A DNA stretch of 64,000 nt from Morococcus cerebrosus (lineage in GTDB: Bacteria > Pseudomonadota > Gammaproteobacteria > Burkholderiales > Neisseriaceae), in contig NZ_CP094242.1 of NCBI RefSeq assembly GCF_022749515.1, positions 2,232,001 to 2,296,000 on the forward strand, given 5' to 3'. The notes beneath the pieces are model-generated. The model had not been told where the DNA came from. It ran no database searches and saw only the letters and a program-made list of their open reading frames with translations. Below, piece after piece: positions 1,975 to 41,237 of the stretch (position 1 is the stretch's first letter; the number at the start of each line of letters is the position of its first letter). Made by a program: the position numbers and the translations under genes.

Positions 1975-2541
1975 AATCATTACCTCGCACAGGCGGGCAG
2001 CCTTTTCAGACGACCTGCCTGCTCTTTGTCAGACACTCTGCGAGGCGGGCGGGATTGGGCATAGCCCGCGCCCCTTTTCGGCGCGGAATGCAGAAACCCG
2101 GATGAGCAATCAGTTTTTGAATTGAAGTCCGCAAGGTTGCACGCCGCCCAAAACAATGCGGCCGTGTGCGGAAGGATACGGATAAAGAAGGCAATAAAGA
2201 ACAATGCGGCGGAACGCTCCGTCCGCCGCCGAAGTCCGGACGGTACAGGTCCGGCTTGGAAAACAGGTAGCCGACATCTTCTTATTATCGTTATGCCGGA
2301 AGTTTCGAACGGTGCGGCGCGGCAGGTTTGTCAAACACCCGCCCCTCGTCTTATGCCCGGTCAAATCGGCAAAATCAAATCAAACTTAATCACGTTCCTG
2401 CGTTTACGGGCTTTGGCATAAACGCAGGGAAAATGCTTTGCAGAGTGCGTTTTTAATATAAAATCTCGTTTTAACAATACCATCCGTCCCATACGGCCTG
2501 TTTGTACAGGTTTCTGCCGAAACGGATGTTCGGGATTATAG
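1975..2541. promoter_or_regulatory. rne-rluC divergent intergenic region
   Basis: This 567-base stretch has no credible gene. It holds one reverse uptake sequence (about 2005-2016) close to rne and an 8-bp inverted repeat TGCGTTTA/TAAACGCA at 2399-2406 and 2419-2426 with a 12-base loop. An AT-rich block near 2450-2465 could carry the rluC -10 region. In E. coli rne has a long autoregulatory leader; the length here is compatible with that, but no specific conserved structure can be recognised by eye. Confidence 0.5.
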
Positions 2542-3540
2542 ATGAAAACGCACGCAATAAGCAAAGATTCAGTCAGCCTGATTACCGTCGCCGAACACGA
2601 AGCCGGACAACGCCTTGATAACTATCTGATAAAAATCCTCAAAGGCGTACCCAAAAGCCATATCCACCGCATTATCCGCGCCGGAGAAGTGCGCCTGAAC
2701 AAAAAACGCTGCAAGCCCGACAGCCGCATCCAGACAGGCGACCTGCTCCGCATCCCGCCCGTGCGCACCGCCGAAAAACAAAGGTCGTCTGAAAACCGCG
2801 CCCAAGCCGTACCCGCGCGCGAATTTACCATCATCTACGAAGACGACGCATTGCTCGTCATCGACAAACCCGCAGGCACCGCCGTCCACGGCGGCAGCGG
2901 CGTGAGCTTCGGCGTCATCGAACAAATCCGCCGCGCCCGACCCGAAGCCCGCTATCTCGAACTCGTCCACCGCCTCGACAAAGACACCAGCGGTCTCCTG
3001 ATGATCGCCAAAAAACGCAGCGCGCTCGTCAAACTGCACGAAGCCATCCGCAACGACCACCCCAAAAAAATCTACCTCGCACTGGGCGTAGGCAAACTGC
3101 CGAACGACAGCTTCCACGTCAAACTGCCCCTGTTCAAATACACTGGCGCACAAGGCGAAAAAATGGTGCGCGTCAGCGAAGACGGACAATCTGCACACAC
3201 CATCTTCCGCGTGCTCAACCGTTTTTCAGACGACCTCCTGCACCAAGTCGGCCTCTCGCACCTGACCTTGGTCGAAGCTACCCTGAAAACGGGGCGCACC
3301 CACCAAATCCGCGTCCACCTCCAGTCGCAGCACTGCCCCATCGCCGGCGACGAACGCTACGGCGACTACCAAGCCAACAAACGCCTTCAGAAGCTCGGTT
3401 TGAAACGGATGTTCCTGCACGCCGCCGAGCTGCACCTCGACCACCCGCTGACAGGCGAAAAACTCATCTTAAAAGCCCCGCTGCCACAAGATTTGGCACA
3501 ATTCGTCCTGATGCTGGAAAACGCAGGAAAGGTCGTCTGA
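2542..3540 (+). CDS. rluC: 23S rRNA pseudouridine synthase RluC
   Basis: Converts specific uridines of 23S rRNA (955/2504/2580 in E. coli) to pseudouridine. The 332-residue protein has an N-terminal S4 RNA-binding domain (about 18-80) and a RluA-type catalytic domain containing HRLDKDTSGLL, with catalytic Asp146. RluC rather than RluD is favoured by overall architecture and by the divergent rne neighbour. Two uptake sequences lie within the frame (near 2782 and 3225, encoding SSEN and SDDL). A third forms the 3' end, so the gene terminates KVV-stop with the stop codon supplied by the uptake sequence. Confidence 0.95.
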   Translation: MKTHAISKDSVSLITVAEHEAGQRLDNYLIKILKGVPKSHIHRIIRAGEVRLNKKRCKPDSRIQTGDLLRIPPVRTAEKQRSSENRAQAVPAREFTIIYEDDALLVIDKPAGTAVHGGSGVSFGVIEQIRRARPEARYLELVHRLDKDTSGLLMIAKKRSALVKLHEAIRNDHPKKIYLALGVGKLPNDSFHVKLPLFKYTGAQGEKMVRVSEDGQSAHTIFRVLNRFSDDLLHQVGLSHLTLVEATLKTGRTHQIRVHLQSQHCPIAGDERYGDYQANKRLQKLGLKRMFLHAAELHLDHPLTGEKLILKAPLPQDLAQFVLMLENAGKVV

Positions 3541-36868: not shown

Positions 36869-38206
36869 TCACAAAGCCTTAAACGCTTCGATAAATACTT
36901 CCGAACGGTGCGCATAGCCTTTGAACATGTCGAAGCTCGCGCAGGCGGGGCTGAGCAGTATGATATCGCCCGCTTCGGCTTGGGCGTATGCCGTCTGAAC
37001 CGCTTCTTCCAAAGTGGCGCAGTCGGTCATATTCAGACCGCAGCCGTCCAAATCGCGGCGGATTTGCGGCGCATCGACGCCGATCAGGAACACGCCTTTT
37101 GCCTTGCCGGCAAGCGCGTCGCGCAGGGGCGTGAAGTCCTGCCCTTTGCCCATGCCGCCCAAAATCACGAAGAGCGGATTTTGCAAACCGGCAATTGCGG
37201 CGGCGGTCGCGCCGACGTTCGTGCCTTTGCTGTCGTCGATAAACACCACGCCGTTTTTCTCGCCGATTTTTTCCACGCGGTGCGGCAGGCCTTGGAAGGT
37301 TTTGACGTGTTCGAGCAATGCTTCGCGCGGCAAACCGACGGCTTCGCATAAGGCGACAGCAGCCATGACGTTGGCGGCGTTGTGCAGGCCTTGCAGCGGG
37401 ATGTCTTGAGTGGCAATCAAATCTTCATTGCCTTGTTTCAGACGACCCGTCTCGCGTTCCAACCAAAAATCGGCCTCGTGTTCCAACGAAAACCATTTCA
37501 CCTCGCGCCCGGCCCGTTTCATGGCGCGGCAGAACACGTCGTCTGAATTCAAAACCTGCACGCCATCGCCACGGAAAATCTTGGCTTTGGTATGCGCATA
37601 GTCGAGCAAATCGTCGTAGCGGTCGAGATGGTCTTCGGAAATGTTCAGCACCGTCGCCGCAGTCGGGCGCAGGCTTTCGGTGTTTTCCAGTTGGAAGCTG
37701 GAAAGCTCCAACACCCACACATCTGCCTTCTTGCCTTCACGCTGCAATTCCGCCTCCAAAACCGGCGTGCCGATATTGCCCGCGATAACGGTATCCAGCC
37801 CGCACTTGATGCAGAGATAGCCGACTAGGCTCGTTACCGTGGTTTTACCGTTGCTGCCGGTAATCGCAATCACCTTGTCGCCGCGGCGGTTCACAATGTC
37901 CGCCAGCAATTCGATGTCGCCCAACACGCATCCGCCGTTTTGCTTGAACGCCTCGATATCCGGCTGCCGCTCGCTGATGCCGGGACTGAGCGCCAAAATA
38001 TCGAAACCGTTGTCCAGCGCATCTTTCAGACGACCCGTGTAAAACACCAGCCCGTCAAACATCTTACCGATTTGCGACACGCGCTCCGGTTTCAGCTCCG
38101 CATCATAAGCGGCCACCTCCGCGCCGTTTTTGCGCAGATAGGCAATCATGGAAATACCCGTGCCGCCGAGTCCGGCGACGAGGATTTTTTTGTTTTGGAA
38201 AGTCAT
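36869..38206 (-). CDS. murD: UDP-N-acetylmuramoylalanine-D-glutamate ligase
   Basis: Cytoplasmic Mur ligase adding D-Glu. The 445 residues include the N-terminal [24 protein letters not shown] loop [25 protein letters not shown], and C-terminal [19 protein letters not shown] and [22 protein letters not shown]. Two in-frame uptake sequences encode TGRLK (near 37440 and 38030). It is the most upstream dcw gene here; the expected mraY is replaced by the accessory cassette. Confidence 0.97.
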
Positions 38207-38240
38207 TTTGGTTTTGTCCTAAGTTTTTTCAGACGACGTT

Positions 38241-38765
38241 TTATTTCTTTCTCGGTTTTGCCTGACGATAGCCGTTACCGACATTTTTACCCGCATTGAT
38301 ACAAATGCGCCCTTCACATATGTAGGCATCCGACTCAGCAAATGCTTTGGCAGTTTCAATGGCATGTTCATAACTCTCCAATTCCTCACGCCTATCAGCC
38401 AAATCAACAACCGTATATCGCACCACCACAAACAATATAATGGCAGCAATAGCTAATACTACACCAATGCCGATATACCAGCTTTTGATGATTTTATTGA
38501 ATTTCCCCACTTCACGATTTAATTCATCAACCGCCCTTCTATACCCCTCGCTTGCCGAATCCAGCGACTGTACGGTTTCTTGGCGGATGGTTTTCCCTGC
38601 ATTGTCAACTATATTGCCGACCTGTCGTCTGAACCGTTCTGACTCCTCCGACAAAGCACGCTGTTGCTCGTTGATTCGGTCATCGATTTTTCGCCCGTGT
38701 TCAATAACGTCCGCCCGCAACATTATCAACACCTTTATAGCCTCATCAAATTTCTTATCGTCCAT
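38241..38765 (-). CDS. Membrane-anchored coiled-coil protein of unknown function
   Basis: A 174-residue protein. Residues 1-90 are charged and helical (HGRKIDDRINEQQRALSEESERFRRQ...), probably coiled coil. One membrane helix follows (about 94-116, WYIGIGVVLAIAAIILFVVVRY), then a helical tail with a Cys pair (ICEGRIC) and a basic end (KPRKK). I do not recognise a family; a resemblance to plasmid mobilisation proteins of the MbeB/MobB type is only architectural. Third gene of the AT-rich operon, starting 25 bases after the metallopeptidase stop. An immunity or anchoring role is speculation from context. Confidence 0.65.
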   Translation of the reverse strand: MDDKKFDEAIKVLIMLRADVIEHGRKIDDRINEQQRALSEESERFRRQVGNIVDNAGKTIRQETVQSLDSASEGYRRAVDELNREVGKFNKIIKSWYIGIGVVLAIAAIILFVVVRYTVVDLADRREELESYEHAIETAKAFAESDAYICEGRICINAGKNVGNGYRQAKPRKK

Positions 38766-38790
38766 TTAAACCTTCCCGAATATACGGATT

Positions 38791-39873
38791 TCAAAGCGTT
38801 CTGACCATTGCACGGCTTGAATGTGCCAACTCCTGTTGCCGCTCCAATTCCTGCTGCTCTTTATATTCAGTATATTCAGTCAACAGGTTTTCTCCCTGCC
38901 TCAGGATACGCTGACCTTCTTCCGACTGCGCCAGACTTTTACCCAACGCATCCAACTGACTGCTGTCCGCAGACAAAACTGCAGCGTATAAATCACTGCT
39001 GTTCAAATTGTTCCAGTCAGGCAAATTATAGTTGAAAGAGGACTTATCTTGAATTTGTTTGACAGGCTCTCCATTTATATCAGTGACCGTCTCACTTTCC
39101 ACTGGCAAACCACGCTCATCTTGACGCAAATAATCAGTATTTACCGTCTTGATAGTTTCAGTTTTTTCATCGTAAGTTTTGACAGTTTTACCTATAAGGT
39201 TGCCAGCTTTGTCGTAATGATTGGTTTGAGAATTGATAGGATTGGGTACAGAAACATCACCTGGTGTGGTAATGTAATCAGGTCTTATTGGTTCATTATG
39301 AAACTTACTGACCATTTCGTTGGACATTGTTACAGCCAAATGTTCGGGAGCATTATAAAATTTATATTTCAAGTCATTTAATGCAAAAAGCTTGCTATAA
39401 CTGTCTATTTCAATATCAGATTTTGCCAAATTAGGATCAGTCGCATGAACCAACTCATGAAACAGAACATTAGCAGCAGATTGGATACCCAATGAAACTT
39501 TTTTCCCATTAATTTCAGAAAAAATCTCTGCCGATTGATTAGGGTTCCAAAAGATAATCCCATCAGTATTATTGGGTCTTAGTGGATGAAAAGAGTTATC
39601 TCCCTCTTTAAGGATTACGATATGAATACCCATAGCAGAAGCCTTTTGAAGCAGGGAATCAGCTTTTGTATTTTGCTGCAAATATTGCAAAGCCAAGTCT
39701 AATTTTTTAACATCATCCGAATCCGCAGGCATTAAAGCATTGACTTTTATTTTATCAAACTCTTTCAATTCATTACTGTAAGCGCTATTTGCTATTAAAA
39801 CTCTCCCAAAAGTTTCCTTATTTTGCACACTGGCAACAAAACCTTTTTTATTAAAATCCACACTGCTTGTCAT
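38791..39873 (-). CDS. M91/NleD-like HExxH metallopeptidase-domain protein
   Basis: A 360-residue protein with no signal peptide. Residues 80-200 resemble the M91 (NleD-type effector) peptidase: GIIFWNPN, then the zinc motif HELVH at 139-143 (VLFHELVHATDPN), then PEHLAV (Glu177), SNEM and a terminal R-x-x-Y (197-200) as in that family. Residues about 215-285 contain a YD-repeat-like stretch (YDKAGNLIGKTVKTYD). The C-terminus is Gln/Glu-rich helix. The start at 39873 has GGAG upstream. Strongly AT-rich compared with murD and without internal uptake sequences, so likely acquired. Could be an effector or toxin; domain call moderate, role inferred. Confidence 0.7.
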   Translation of the reverse strand: MTSSVDFNKKGFVASVQNKETFGRVLIANSAYSNELKEFDKIKVNALMPADSDDVKKLDLALQYLQQNTKADSLLQKASAMGIHIVILKEGDNSFHPLRPNNTDGIIFWNPNQSAEIFSEINGKKVSLGIQSAANVLFHELVHATDPNLAKSDIEIDSYSKLFALNDLKYKFYNAPEHLAVTMSNEMVSKFHNEPIRPDYITTPGDVSVPNPINSQTNHYDKAGNLIGKTVKTYDEKTETIKTVNTDYLRQDERGLPVESETVTDINGEPVKQIQDKSSFNYNLPDWNNLNSSDLYAAVLSADSSQLDALGKSLAQSEEGQRILRQGENLLTEYTEYKEQQELERQQELAHSSRAMVRTL

Positions 39874-39895
39874 AAATAGCTCCAACCTAAATTAA

Positions 39896-40495
39896 TCATT
39901 TCAGGATATTTTGATTTGGATCGATCGTATCAAATAACTCTTTTAATTCTTTTGAATCCAATAAAATCAAAAAACTCTCATTATTTTTAATAATTTTACT
40001 GAATAAAAAAGCTTCTCCCTCTGCTGCCTCTCGAGTAAGTATTTGAACAGAATGGGTGTTATACTTAACTTCAATCAATATCAAATACACTGAATTAACT
40101 TTATCATTAGGATTTAATGTACTTTTAATTCTATTAAAATTAGAGAAAAAACGAGAAAAGTCTTTTGGCTCTAAACGATAATGAACAGATTTCGTACCAA
40201 ATAAGTCTTTATGACCCAAACTTTCCCCTACTCTTTGTTTAATTTGTTCAGCAGTAGAAATTGGCGAAAATGACTCAACAAATCCATAAAGGGCATATAC
40301 ATCAATGGATTTAATGCCTTCACTAGGAATCTGTATTACCTCATTTAATTTTTTTGCATTTTCAGCAAAATAAGTATTCATATTCATATTATGTAGCTCC
40401 TGTTTTTTCGAAATATTCACATCTTTTACCAAAGTTTCTGTTTGGCAGGCTGATAATGTTATACAAAAACTAATTCCAAGTAGGAATCTCAACAT
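39896..40495 (-). CDS. Predicted lipoprotein of unknown function
   Basis: A 199-residue protein with a short signal peptide and lipobox LSAC (Cys17), hence lipidated. The mature part is mixed alpha/beta, Lys/Asn-rich, with no recognised domain (KDFSRFFSNFNRIKSTLNPNDKVNSVYLILIEVKYNTHSVQI). Residue after Cys is Gln, so outer-membrane sorting is expected if Lol rules apply. First gene of the AT-rich operon, ending 22 bases before the metallopeptidase start. AAAGGA lies just upstream of the ATG. Confidence 0.75.
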   Translation of the reverse strand: MLRFLLGISFCITLSACQTETLVKDVNISKKQELHNMNMNTYFAENAKKLNEVIQIPSEGIKSIDVYALYGFVESFSPISTAEQIKQRVGESLGHKDLFGTKSVHYRLEPKDFSRFFSNFNRIKSTLNPNDKVNSVYLILIEVKYNTHSVQILTREAAEGEAFLFSKIIKNNESFLILLDSKELKELFDTIDPNQNILK

Positions 40496-40757: not shown

Positions 40758-41237
40758 TCAAGCTTCAAAATACCCGTCCACACCATATTGCTTCAAGACG
40801 TTTTTCAGCTCGGGAATTCGGATTGCGGGATCGACTGCCATCGGCGGCATGGGCGGGTCTACGCCTTCTTCGTTTTGGTTGCGCATCCAGTCCGCCATCG
40901 CAAAAATGCGGATAAGGACGGGCTCGGCAAGGTCTTTGCCGATTTCCAATTCGTTCATGGCTTGGGCGAAGCAGGCGACCCATTCGTCGCGCACCTGCAT
41001 ATTCACGGCAAAGGGCATGTGCCGCGCGCGCAGCATGGGATGGCCGTATTTCTGCTCGAACAAGGGCGGGCCGCCGAGCCAGCCGCTGAAAAATTCGTAG
41101 AGTTTTTCGCGAATCAGCGTCATGTCTTCGCCGTGCATCTGGCGCAGGGCGCGGTATGGCGGCTCGAGTTCCATCAAGTCGTAAAAGCGGTCGGTCAGGT
41201 TGCGTACGCCTGCCGCGCCGCCGAATGCGTGATACAT
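40758..41237 (-). CDS. Group II truncated haemoglobin
   Basis: A 159-residue haem protein of the trHbO/YjbI class, about 30 residues longer at the C-terminus than a minimal 2/2 globin. Expected residues are present: Tyr19 at B10 (RFYDLM), Phe49/50 around CD1, proximal His73 (RARHMPF) and Trp86 at G8 (RDEWVACF), the group II hallmark. Possible roles are NO or peroxide detoxification or O2 chemistry. Monocistronic, divergent from lrgA with uptake sequences in the gap. The C-terminal tail has a Pro-rich PPMPPMAVDP stretch. Confidence 0.9.
   Translation of the reverse strand: MYHAFGGAAGVRNLTDRFYDLMELEPPYRALRQMHGEDMTLIREKLYEFFSGWLGGPPLFEQKYGHPMLRARHMPFAVNMQVRDEWVACFAQAMNELEIGKDLAEPVLIRIFAMADWMRNQNEEGVDPPMPPMAVDPAIRIPELKNVLKQYGVDGYFEA

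What the first reader, a model, noticed from the sequence alone, without database searches (positions are those of the whole stretch)
38241..40495. AT-rich three-gene cassette: lipoprotein + M91-like metallopeptidase + membrane coiled-coil protein
Seen: three same-strand genes with 22- and 25-base gaps, much AT-richer than murD and the haemoglobin gene on either side, with no uptake sequence inside and only degenerate copies at the borders (near 38225 and 40743). Known: genes native to Neisseria carry uptake sequences, and foreign islands often lack them. Inference: a horizontally acquired effector/partner module inserted where the dcw cluster is broken upstream of murD. The combination of an outer-membrane-type lipoprotein, an HExxH protein and an inner-membrane anchored partner does not match any system I can name.
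Basis: partly seen in the sequence, partly recalled or inferred. Interest (0 to 1): 0.78.

Follow-up and report, generated by a model that had tools for sequence, protein, structure and literature searches.

The report
Toxin cassette with dedicated delivery partner
Three neighbouring genes in a Neisseria genome look like an antibacterial toxin (a protein-cutting enzyme), its antidote and a membrane helper, and the toxin's tail together with the helper recurs with other toxins in bacteria most of which carry a bacteria-killing injection machine, which suggests a second, helper-dependent way of loading that machine.

Summary
The three genes are real (lipoprotein 40495-39896, M91-like protein 39873-38791, coiled-coil membrane protein 38765-38241, minus strand). 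They are best read as an effector cassette of the Neisserial bacteria-killing type IV secretion system (X-T4SS); the genome has VirB4/6/8/9/10/11 and an X-type VirD4. The M91-like protein ends in a short helical module with Q-rich tail (residues 282-364). In metagenomic proteins this C-terminus is fused to two other N-terminal domains, and it is not XVIPCD, the known X-T4SS recognition domain. The coiled-coil family sits beside such effectors in Neisseria and, picked by the coiled coil alone, beside effector-like genes in 8 of 8 readable Xanthomonadales loci, which carry the same module (6 clearly, 2 weakly). Of 24 coiled-coil-linked effectors 21 lack XVIPCD; toxin domains of 10 of 24 also occur on XVIPCD effectors. 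Best explanation: immunity lipoprotein, metalloprotease toxin, and a membrane-anchored coiled-coil adaptor that brings an XVIPCD-less effector to VirD4. Adaptor role, toxicity and immunity are inferred, not shown. The T6SS marker VipB was not found in any of the three carrier genomes.

The parts
39896..40495 (-). 199-aa lipoprotein (lipobox LSAC, Cys17 by eye), proposed immunity protein of the M91-like toxin
   Evidence: ORF; no Pfam, NCBIfam or PHROG match of note; 35 relatives, all at 84-100% identity; 90% identical copies in G011 and G063; GC 29%. Immunity role inferred from position and lipobox, as in X-Tfe/X-Tfi pairs (PMC10933484, passages)
38791..39873 (-). M91-like zinc peptidase effector, 360 aa from ATG 39873 (TTG at 39885 would add 4 aa)
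39445..39459 (-). HELVH zinc-binding motif (residues 143-147 in TTG numbering)
   Evidence: sequence; HE[LM][VI]H in the window protein and the 5 M91-type relatives aligned
38863..39042 (-). C-terminal short helical module (type A), residues 282-341
   Evidence: shared alone by 7 of 26 hits (P0020-P0026) that have other N-terminal domains; same module in effectors beside coiled-coil genes of Xanthomonadales
38794..38862 (-). Q/E-rich tail of the effector, residues 342-364
   Evidence: mean Q content of the last 45 aa 17% in 24 coiled-coil-linked and 18% in 18 XVIPCD effectors against 5% in 88 long window frames
38241..38765 (-). 174-aa coiled-coil single-pass membrane protein, proposed adaptor
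   Evidence: family members beside effectors in Neisseria and Xanthomonadales
38406..38468 (-). hydrophobic (transmembrane) segment of the coiled-coil protein, residues 100-120
   Evidence: hydropathy
38301..38318 (-). C-x4-C motif (Cys150, Cys155) in the C-terminal tail, kept in 28 of 28 family members
38624..38633 (+). DNA uptake sequence core GTCGTCTGAA inside the coiled-coil gene
36869..38206 (-). murD, downstream flank
40758..41237 (-). truncated globin gene, upstream flank

Best explanation
The cassette is an antibacterial effector unit of the bacteria-killing type IV secretion system (X-T4SS) of this Neisseria. The M91-like zinc peptidase is the toxin. The lipoprotein guards the cell's own periplasm against it. 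The toxin's short C-terminal helical module with Q-rich tail is its delivery signal; it takes the place of the usual XVIPCD. It works together with the third protein, a coiled-coil protein anchored in the inner membrane, which acts as an adaptor or chaperone: it binds the module and hands the toxin to the coupling protein VirD4. Shown here: gene order, exchange of toxin domains on the same C-terminus, co-occurrence of the coiled-coil family with X-type VirD4 in the genus, pairing of coiled coil and module across two classes of Proteobacteria. Inferred: secretion through VirD4, binding of module and coiled coil, toxicity, immunity.
For: (1) Modularity: 7 of 26 homologues share only the C-terminal ~80 aa and carry two other kinds of N-terminal domain; one kind is homologous (31%, E 4e-29) to that of the effector in the virD4 cluster of this very genome, which bears a weak XVIPCD (PF20410 E 0.094). 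(2) Machine: G000 has VirB4, B6, B8, B9, B10, B11 and VirD4; X-type VirD4 (62% or more identity over most of its length) in 7 of 46 genus genomes, including all 3 carriers (P 0.0023 without correction for kinship). (3) Partner: coiled-coil family in all 7 X-VirD4 genomes and in 2 of the 39 others; in one of these two the effector looks split, in the other the coiled-coil gene is broken. (4) Independent test: Xanthomonadales loci were picked by the coiled coil alone; among 1116 ORFs there, the C-terminal profile made beforehand hit at E<=1 only the 8 ORFs directly upstream of the 8 complete coiled-coil genes (6 at E 4e-9 to 1.4e-3, 2 weak at 0.03 and 0.2). (5) 21 of 24 coiled-coil-linked effectors lack XVIPCD; around the 18 XVIPCD effectors used for training a 28-sequence coiled-coil profile gave only two marginal hits (E 0.01) in 22 loci. 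(6) 10 of 24 coiled-coil-linked toxins, 8 of the 21 without XVIPCD, have an XVIPCD-borne relative (best E per toxin 4e-8 to 3e-74). (7) In the coiled-coil tree the 11 rows next to type-A modules, from Neisseria and Xanthomonadales, with 3 metagenome relatives, lie on one side of a branch (99/100); the window's protein is 27-32% identical to the Xanthomonadales ones but 14% to the second family member of its own genome. [quoted passage not shown] PMC11253643; passages), so an effector with only the Q-rich end would need another way to VirD4.
Against: No interaction, secretion or toxicity is shown. Three coiled-coil-linked effectors (G025, G068, G021) have XVIPCD as well, so the coiled coil is not simply a substitute for it. 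The region ahead of their XVIPCD is not detectably homologous to the window's module. Module types A and B show no sequence similarity to each other. With the Q-rich tail left out, the profile hits 6 and not 8 of the Xanthomonadales ORFs. In the tree type B is not one group: one B row pairs with an XVIPCD-linked one. For Rhodanobacter, X. albilineans and Xanthomonas GPE 39 the best VirD4 is 43-45% identical, no better than other VirD4 proteins in Neisseria, so an X-T4SS there is not established. The M91 match is below Pfam's cut-off.
Confidence: 0.66

Rival explanations
1. Same effector/immunity cassette of the X-T4SS, but the coiled-coil protein is a second immunity protein or an inner-membrane guard, not an adaptor.
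For: It is small, has a hydrophobic segment and is encoded beside the toxin; some antidote candidates of other cassettes also begin with a hydrophobic segment.
Against: It follows the C-terminal module, not the toxin: family members sit beside GH19 and Tle1-like toxins (above Pfam cut-offs), SLT- and lipase-like ones (below) and M91-like ones, and the tree puts members beside type-A modules together although their toxins differ. Immunity proteins follow the toxin.
Confidence: 0.14
2. The coiled-coil protein is a co-effector or passenger injected with the toxin that helps it across a membrane of the target cell.
For: One hydrophobic segment after a long helix; constant pairing with the effector module.
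Against: The XVIPCD and module profiles give only chance-level scores on the coiled-coil ORFs, though I made no wider search for a signal; the C-x4-C tail in 28 of 28 members would suit a resident envelope protein.
Confidence: 0.12
3. A type VI secretion effector/immunity cassette.
For: M91 domains occur in T6SS effectors with reported antibacterial activity (PMC8867033, passages); VipB occurs in 15 of 46 genus genomes.
Against: VipB was not found in the three carriers G000, G011 and G063; no PAAR, Rhs or VgrG family among the matches of the three proteins. With only 3 carriers the absence alone is not significant (p 0.54).
Confidence: 0.03
4. Unrelated genes thrown together in an AT-rich variable islet, with no common function.
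For: The site is variable and holds other things in the other genomes read.
Against: The three genes travel together in 3 of 3 carriers, and module plus coiled coil recur together in 8 of 8 readable Xanthomonadales loci.
Confidence: 0.03

Closest known systems
X-Tfe/X-Tfi effector-immunity pairs of bacteria-killing type IV secretion systems (X. citri, S. maltophilia, L. enzymogenes; X-T4SS loci listed for N. mucosa C102, N. flavescens SK114 and others in PMC6536674, passages and one section read)
   Same: genome with X-type VirD4 and VirB proteins; toxin with variable N-terminal domain and C-terminal part with Q-rich tail; antidote with lipobox next to it; islets scattered in housekeeping loci; toxin domains shared with XVIPCD effectors
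   Different: no XVIPCD; a shorter C-terminal module; an extra membrane coiled-coil gene that pairs with the module
Atypical T4Es lacking XVIPCD (Le1637, XAC2247; PMC10989847, abstract, part 1 of 3 of Results and passages seen)
   Same: homologues of T4SS effector toxins without XVIPCD, with a neighbouring detoxifying gene; the paper reports such homologues in each genome searched, N. mucosa C102 among them
   Different: no replacement module and no coiled-coil partner in what I read; 'coiled', 'adaptor', 'chaperone' and 'transmembrane' do not occur in its main text
M91 metallopeptidases (NleD; VgrG2b and Rhs-M91 of T6SS)
   Same: HExxH and weak Pfam M91 match; antibacterial precedent reported (PMC8867033, passages)
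   Different: below the Pfam cut-off; different delivery part; no VipB in the carriers
Adaptors or chaperones of other secretion systems (recalled: Eag and DUF4123 of T6SS, Lap partners of LXG toxins, MobB-type helpers of relaxases)
   Same: small partner encoded beside the effector and matched to its delivery domain, not to its toxin
   Different: likeness is of role only; I ran no comparison with these families beyond the Pfam, NCBIfam and PHROG scans, which list none of them

Membership tests
X-Tfe (X-T4SS effector) | C-terminal XVIPCD (PF20410) | tested here: not met
   no PF20410 in the M91-like protein at E<=1; XVIPCD profile from 18 Neisserial effectors scores 2.2 bits; hhalign of the C-terminus against Neisserial XVIPCDs probability 1.7%
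X-Tfe (X-T4SS effector) | glutamine-rich C-terminal tail | tested here: met
X-Tfe (X-T4SS effector) | producer genome has an X-T4SS | tested here: met
   VirB4/6/8/9/10/11 by Pfam, X-type VirD4; VirB1, 2, 3, 5 and 7 not identified by me
X-Tfe (X-T4SS effector) | adjacent antidote with signal peptide and lipobox | tested here: met
   by sequence and by eye only: lipobox LSAC, Cys17, gene next to the toxin; protection not tested
X-Tfe (X-T4SS effector) | binding to VirD4 and VirD4-dependent secretion | not testable with these tools
   bench test needed
Peptidase M91 | match above the Pfam cut-off | tested here: not met
   20.7 bits against 25; Kingella oralis relative P0015 24.4
Peptidase M91 | HExxH and zincin fold | tested here: met
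T6SS effector | T6SS in the carrier genome | tested here: not met
   no VipB match in G000, G011, G063
T3SS effector (NleD, XopG) | T3SS in the carrier genome | not tested
   NCBIfam XopG only at E 0.021, 14.8 bits against a cut-off of 150
Coiled-coil partner family defined here | long N-terminal helix, one hydrophobic segment, C-x4-C tail, beside an effector with a C-terminal module | tested here: met
   the coiled coil itself is judged from sequence

The most novel reading that the evidence does not exclude
The bacteria-killing type IV secretion system has a second substrate class that does not use XVIPCD: effectors with a short C-terminal docking module that depend on a dedicated, co-evolving, membrane-anchored coiled-coil adaptor to reach VirD4. 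Toxin domains move between the two classes, so searches built on XVIPCD miss part of the arsenal: 2 of the 4 effector cassettes that I read in the window's genome (window, L139 against L054, L102).
Probability: 0.5. Interest if true: 0.85.

Novelty: new variant of a known kind. Interest (0 to 1): 0.74.

Why it matters
A 2024 paper states that all X-Tfes contain XVIPCD, which binds VirD4 directly (PMC10933484, passages). If the class described here is secreted by the same machine, effector lists built on XVIPCD are incomplete, and the coiled-coil family gives a simple genomic marker for the missing ones. It would also be an adaptor for a minimal VirB/VirD4 system that kills bacteria, open to test by one deletion.

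Tried and rejected
Known-family searches with the three proteins gave only weak hits; the Synaptobrevin (E 2.7e-4), DUF948 and pore-toxin hits of the coiled-coil protein were taken as coiled-coil noise, as were its apolipoprotein hits in the PDB. A SNARE-like hit beside a peptidase whose fold resembles SNARE-cutting light chains suggested a decoy-substrate idea; rejected, because the coiled-coil family also sits beside GH19- and Tle1-like toxins.

Homology of the C-terminal module to XVIPCD was tested and not found. Homology of the module to the region ahead of XVIPCD in the three double effectors was my first idea and did not hold (hhalign probability 8%). Types A and B are not detectably related.

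A scan of genome contigs and one of viral contigs with the C-terminal alignment confirmed nothing. Foldseek of the M91 model found nothing at E<=0.001; its sequence profile found no solved relative at E<=0.1. The lipoprotein model was too poor to use (mean pLDDT 56). An orphan antidote in G011 (203 aa) is only weakly supported. Charges around the hydrophobic segment did not settle the orientation of the coiled-coil protein. The PF20410 search at E<=1 also rang in 5 of 14 control genomes, so most of its weak hits are chance.
Full report
WHAT IS THERE. Three minus-strand genes lie between a truncated globin gene (40758-41237) and murD (36869-38206): a 199-aa lipoprotein (40495-39896), an M91-like protein (ATG 39873 to 38791, 360 aa; a TTG at 39885 would add four residues) and a 174-aa coiled-coil membrane protein (38765-38241). 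The ATG at 39873 has GGAG ahead of it. GC is 29.2% for the lipoprotein gene, 35.3% for the N-terminal part of the M91-like gene, 46.8% for its C-terminal part and 44.8% for the coiled-coil gene, against 57.0% for murD. The composition thus steps inside the M91-like gene, between enzyme and C-terminal module.

DISTRIBUTION AT THE SITE. All three genes occur in 3 of 46 genus genomes (G000, the window's own; G011; G063), 89-93% identical to the window's (G063's M91-like gene by DNA, 92%), always upstream of murD. One search found the M91-like protein in 2 of 60 relatives, which did not include G063, with the C-terminal profile, found it in 3 of 83 family genomes; one search also lists a weak coiled-coil match in G015 (26%, E 9.6e-4) that I take for noise. 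I read the site in 8 genomes. In G009, G027, G029 and G031 it holds two or more genes that look like Sel1 repeats (name recalled, not scanned), and in G025 mraY is followed directly by murD. In G011 and G063 murF and mraY are still beside the globin gene, so the cassette does not depend on the break of the dcw cluster.

THE C-TERMINUS IS A MODULE. A search of 5.8 billion proteins with the M91-like protein gave 26 hits; 7 of them (P0020-P0026) share only the C-terminal ~80 residues. Six carry one other kind of N-terminal domain and one (P0022) carries another HExxH protein. P0021's N-terminal domain is homologous (31% over 274 columns, E 4e-29) to that of a 449-aa protein encoded in the virD4 cluster of the window's own genome, which has a weak XVIPCD (PF20410, E 0.094, below cut-off). 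P0024 and the coiled-coil protein P0067 are each known from one contig of the same length, 6487 bases, which suggests that they are neighbours; the contig itself was not seen.

THE MACHINE. The window's genome encodes VirB4, B6, B8, B9, B10 and B11 and a VirD4 of 565 aa followed by two related proteins with hydrophobic N-termini and the 449-aa effector. X-T4SSs of Neisseria are listed in PMC6536674 (passages and section 13 read). In the genus, 25 of 46 genomes have some VirD4 match; 7 have one at 62% identity or more over most of its length, the three carriers among them; the others are at 37-44% or are fragments. The chance that three carriers fall in the seven is 0.0023 without correction for kinship. 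VirB10-like proteins are present in all three carriers, T6SS VipB in none of them, though in 15 of 46 genomes.

EFFECTORS WITH AND WITHOUT THE COILED COIL. A PF20410 search at E<=1 rang in 23 of 46 genomes, one above the cut-off, and in 5 of 14 control genomes, none above it, so many weak hits are chance. I fetched 20 stretches around hits, not all hits listed, and read the genes. They show the known picture: XVIPCD effectors behind antidote genes, as islets in housekeeping loci. In three of them (G025 and G068 between nuo genes, G021 near pyrH; gene names by eye) a third gene follows that a profile of the window's coiled-coil family recognises (E 1.8e-5 to 1.3e-4 among 2761 ORFs; profile-profile E 1.6e-9 over the hydrophobic segment and tail). 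A wider profile then found the family, at E<=0.05, in 10 of 83 family genomes: 9 of 46 in the genus plus G080, which also has a 62% VirD4. All 7 genus genomes with X-type VirD4 have it, and 2 of the other 39, G006 and G024; in G006 the effector looks split and in G024 the coiled-coil gene is broken. Fisher's p is 7e-7, again without correction for kinship. Each further complete copy in that list lies in a cluster with an effector-like gene that ends in a short module and Q/E-rich tail; L146 is cut by its contig start. The window's genome has a second such cassette next to murF, with an SLT-like toxin (below Pfam's cut-off) (L139).

INDEPENDENT TEST IN XANTHOMONADALES. A scan of the genome-contig collection with the coiled-coil alignment alone gave 9 loci: Rhodanobacter, Luteimonas (4), Pseudoxanthomonas, X. 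albilineans, Xanthomonas sp. GPE 39, Lysobacter pythonis. The last is cut by its contig end and was dropped. In 8 of 8 others an effector-like ORF ends directly upstream of the coiled-coil gene. The C-terminal profile A2, built before these loci were known, hit among 1116 ORFs of the nine loci only those 8 ORFs at E<=1: six at 4e-9 to 1.4e-3, the two Xanthomonas ones weakly (0.03, 0.2). Without the Q-rich tail it hits the six but not the two. None of the 8 has the Neisserial XVIPCD, and none of 7 scanned has PF20410. All nine genomes have a VirD4 match: six at 59-66% (one of them partial), three (Rhodanobacter and the two Xanthomonas) at 43-45%, so for these three the X-type is not established.

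CENSUS. Of 24 coiled-coil-linked effectors 21 lack XVIPCD and 3 have it. Most of the 21 were found through the coiled coil, so 'coiled coil always present' is by construction for them. Less biased views are the XVIPCD side (3 of the 21 XVIPCD effectors that I took up have a coiled coil; one remnant, L096, was left out; around the other 18 a 28-sequence coiled-coil profile gave only two marginal hits, E 0.01, in 22 loci) and the module side (3 of 3 hits have it). Two module types exist: A (3 Neisserial copies of the window's cassette and 8 Xanthomonadales) and B (8 Neisserial effectors), without detectable similarity; two more effectors fit neither. Ten of 24 coiled-coil-linked toxins have a relative among the 18 XVIPCD-borne ones (8 of the 21 without XVIPCD; for G080 only 49 residues align): the same toxin travels on either delivery part.

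CO-EVOLUTION. In a tree of 28 coiled-coil proteins the 11 next to type-A modules, from Neisseria and Xanthomonadales, together with 3 metagenome relatives whose neighbours are unknown, lie on one side of a branch (support 99/100; one change, shuffled mean 8.4, 0 of 500 shuffles as low). Type B needs two changes, because one B row pairs with the G021 row that sits beside an XVIPCD effector. The window's protein is 27-32% identical to the Xanthomonadales ones and 14% to the other family member of its own genome. The Xanthomonadales set was selected by likeness to the coiled-coil alignment, so its clustering with the window is partly by selection; that its neighbours carry the type-A module was not selected for. 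All 28 keep a C-x4-C motif after the hydrophobic segment.

MECHANISM. XVIPCD's N-terminal part binds VirD4 and its Q-rich end is needed for secretion (PMC11253643, passages; PMC10933484, passages). The cassette's toxin has the Q-rich end but not the VirD4-binding part; it has instead a module that goes with a membrane coiled-coil protein. The simplest reading is that this protein supplies the missing link to VirD4. This step is inference. The three effectors that have both XVIPCD and a coiled coil show that the partner can also be an extra, for instance a chaperone.

NOVELTY. In the library of open papers, searches for XVIPCD with Neisseria, for commensal Neisseria with T4SS or T6SS effectors, for XVIPCD with its tail, with chaperone or coiled-coil, for X-Tfe/X-Tfi/X-T4SS since 2020, for bacteria-killing T4SS with adaptor, and for XVIPCD alone since 2021 listed no paper whose title or shown abstract start describes such a partner. 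I saw passages or sections of five of the T4SS papers and of two M91 papers, none in full. XVIPCD-less homologues of T4SS effectors as such are known (PMC10989847). Many subscription papers and all preprints are not held, so prior description cannot be excluded.

Noticed in passing
L139 (G000:C1:185500-191000), 2024-3451: A second cassette of the same design in the window's own genome, next to murF: SLT-like toxin with type-B module followed by a coiled-coil gene. murF (about 0.19 Mb) and murD (2.27 Mb) lie far apart in this 2.57 Mb genome, and each has a cassette beside it.
   Followed up: partly
L040, 8133-8744 (G011): 203-aa protein upstream of the cassette, with a weak match (E 0.0088 among 2761 ORFs) to the antidote family of the virD4 cluster; possibly an orphan antidote of the alternative toxin seen in P0021, which would mark toxin exchange at this site.
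   Followed up: partly
L042, L044, L045, L046 between globin and murD: Two or more genes that look like Sel1 repeats occupy the site that holds the cassette in the window.
   Followed up: partly
L144 (G006), L147 (G024): Coiled-coil cassettes in genomes without X-type VirD4: in G006 the effector looks split in two ORFs, in G024 the coiled-coil gene is broken.
   Followed up: partly
L138, L140: Other gene order: coiled-coil gene first (after glmU, name by eye), then small antidote candidates, then effector.
   Followed up: no
L054 1474-2439 and 232-825; L102 28-261: Transposase-like ORFs (IS30 family by memory) near the virD4 cluster and the record start of the window's genome.
   Followed up: no
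L088 and L106: The same lipoprotein-effector-coiled-coil unit sits between nuo genes in both G025 and G068, and its toxin domain also occurs on an XVIPCD effector of the window's genome (L102, near mutS by eye).
   Followed up: partly
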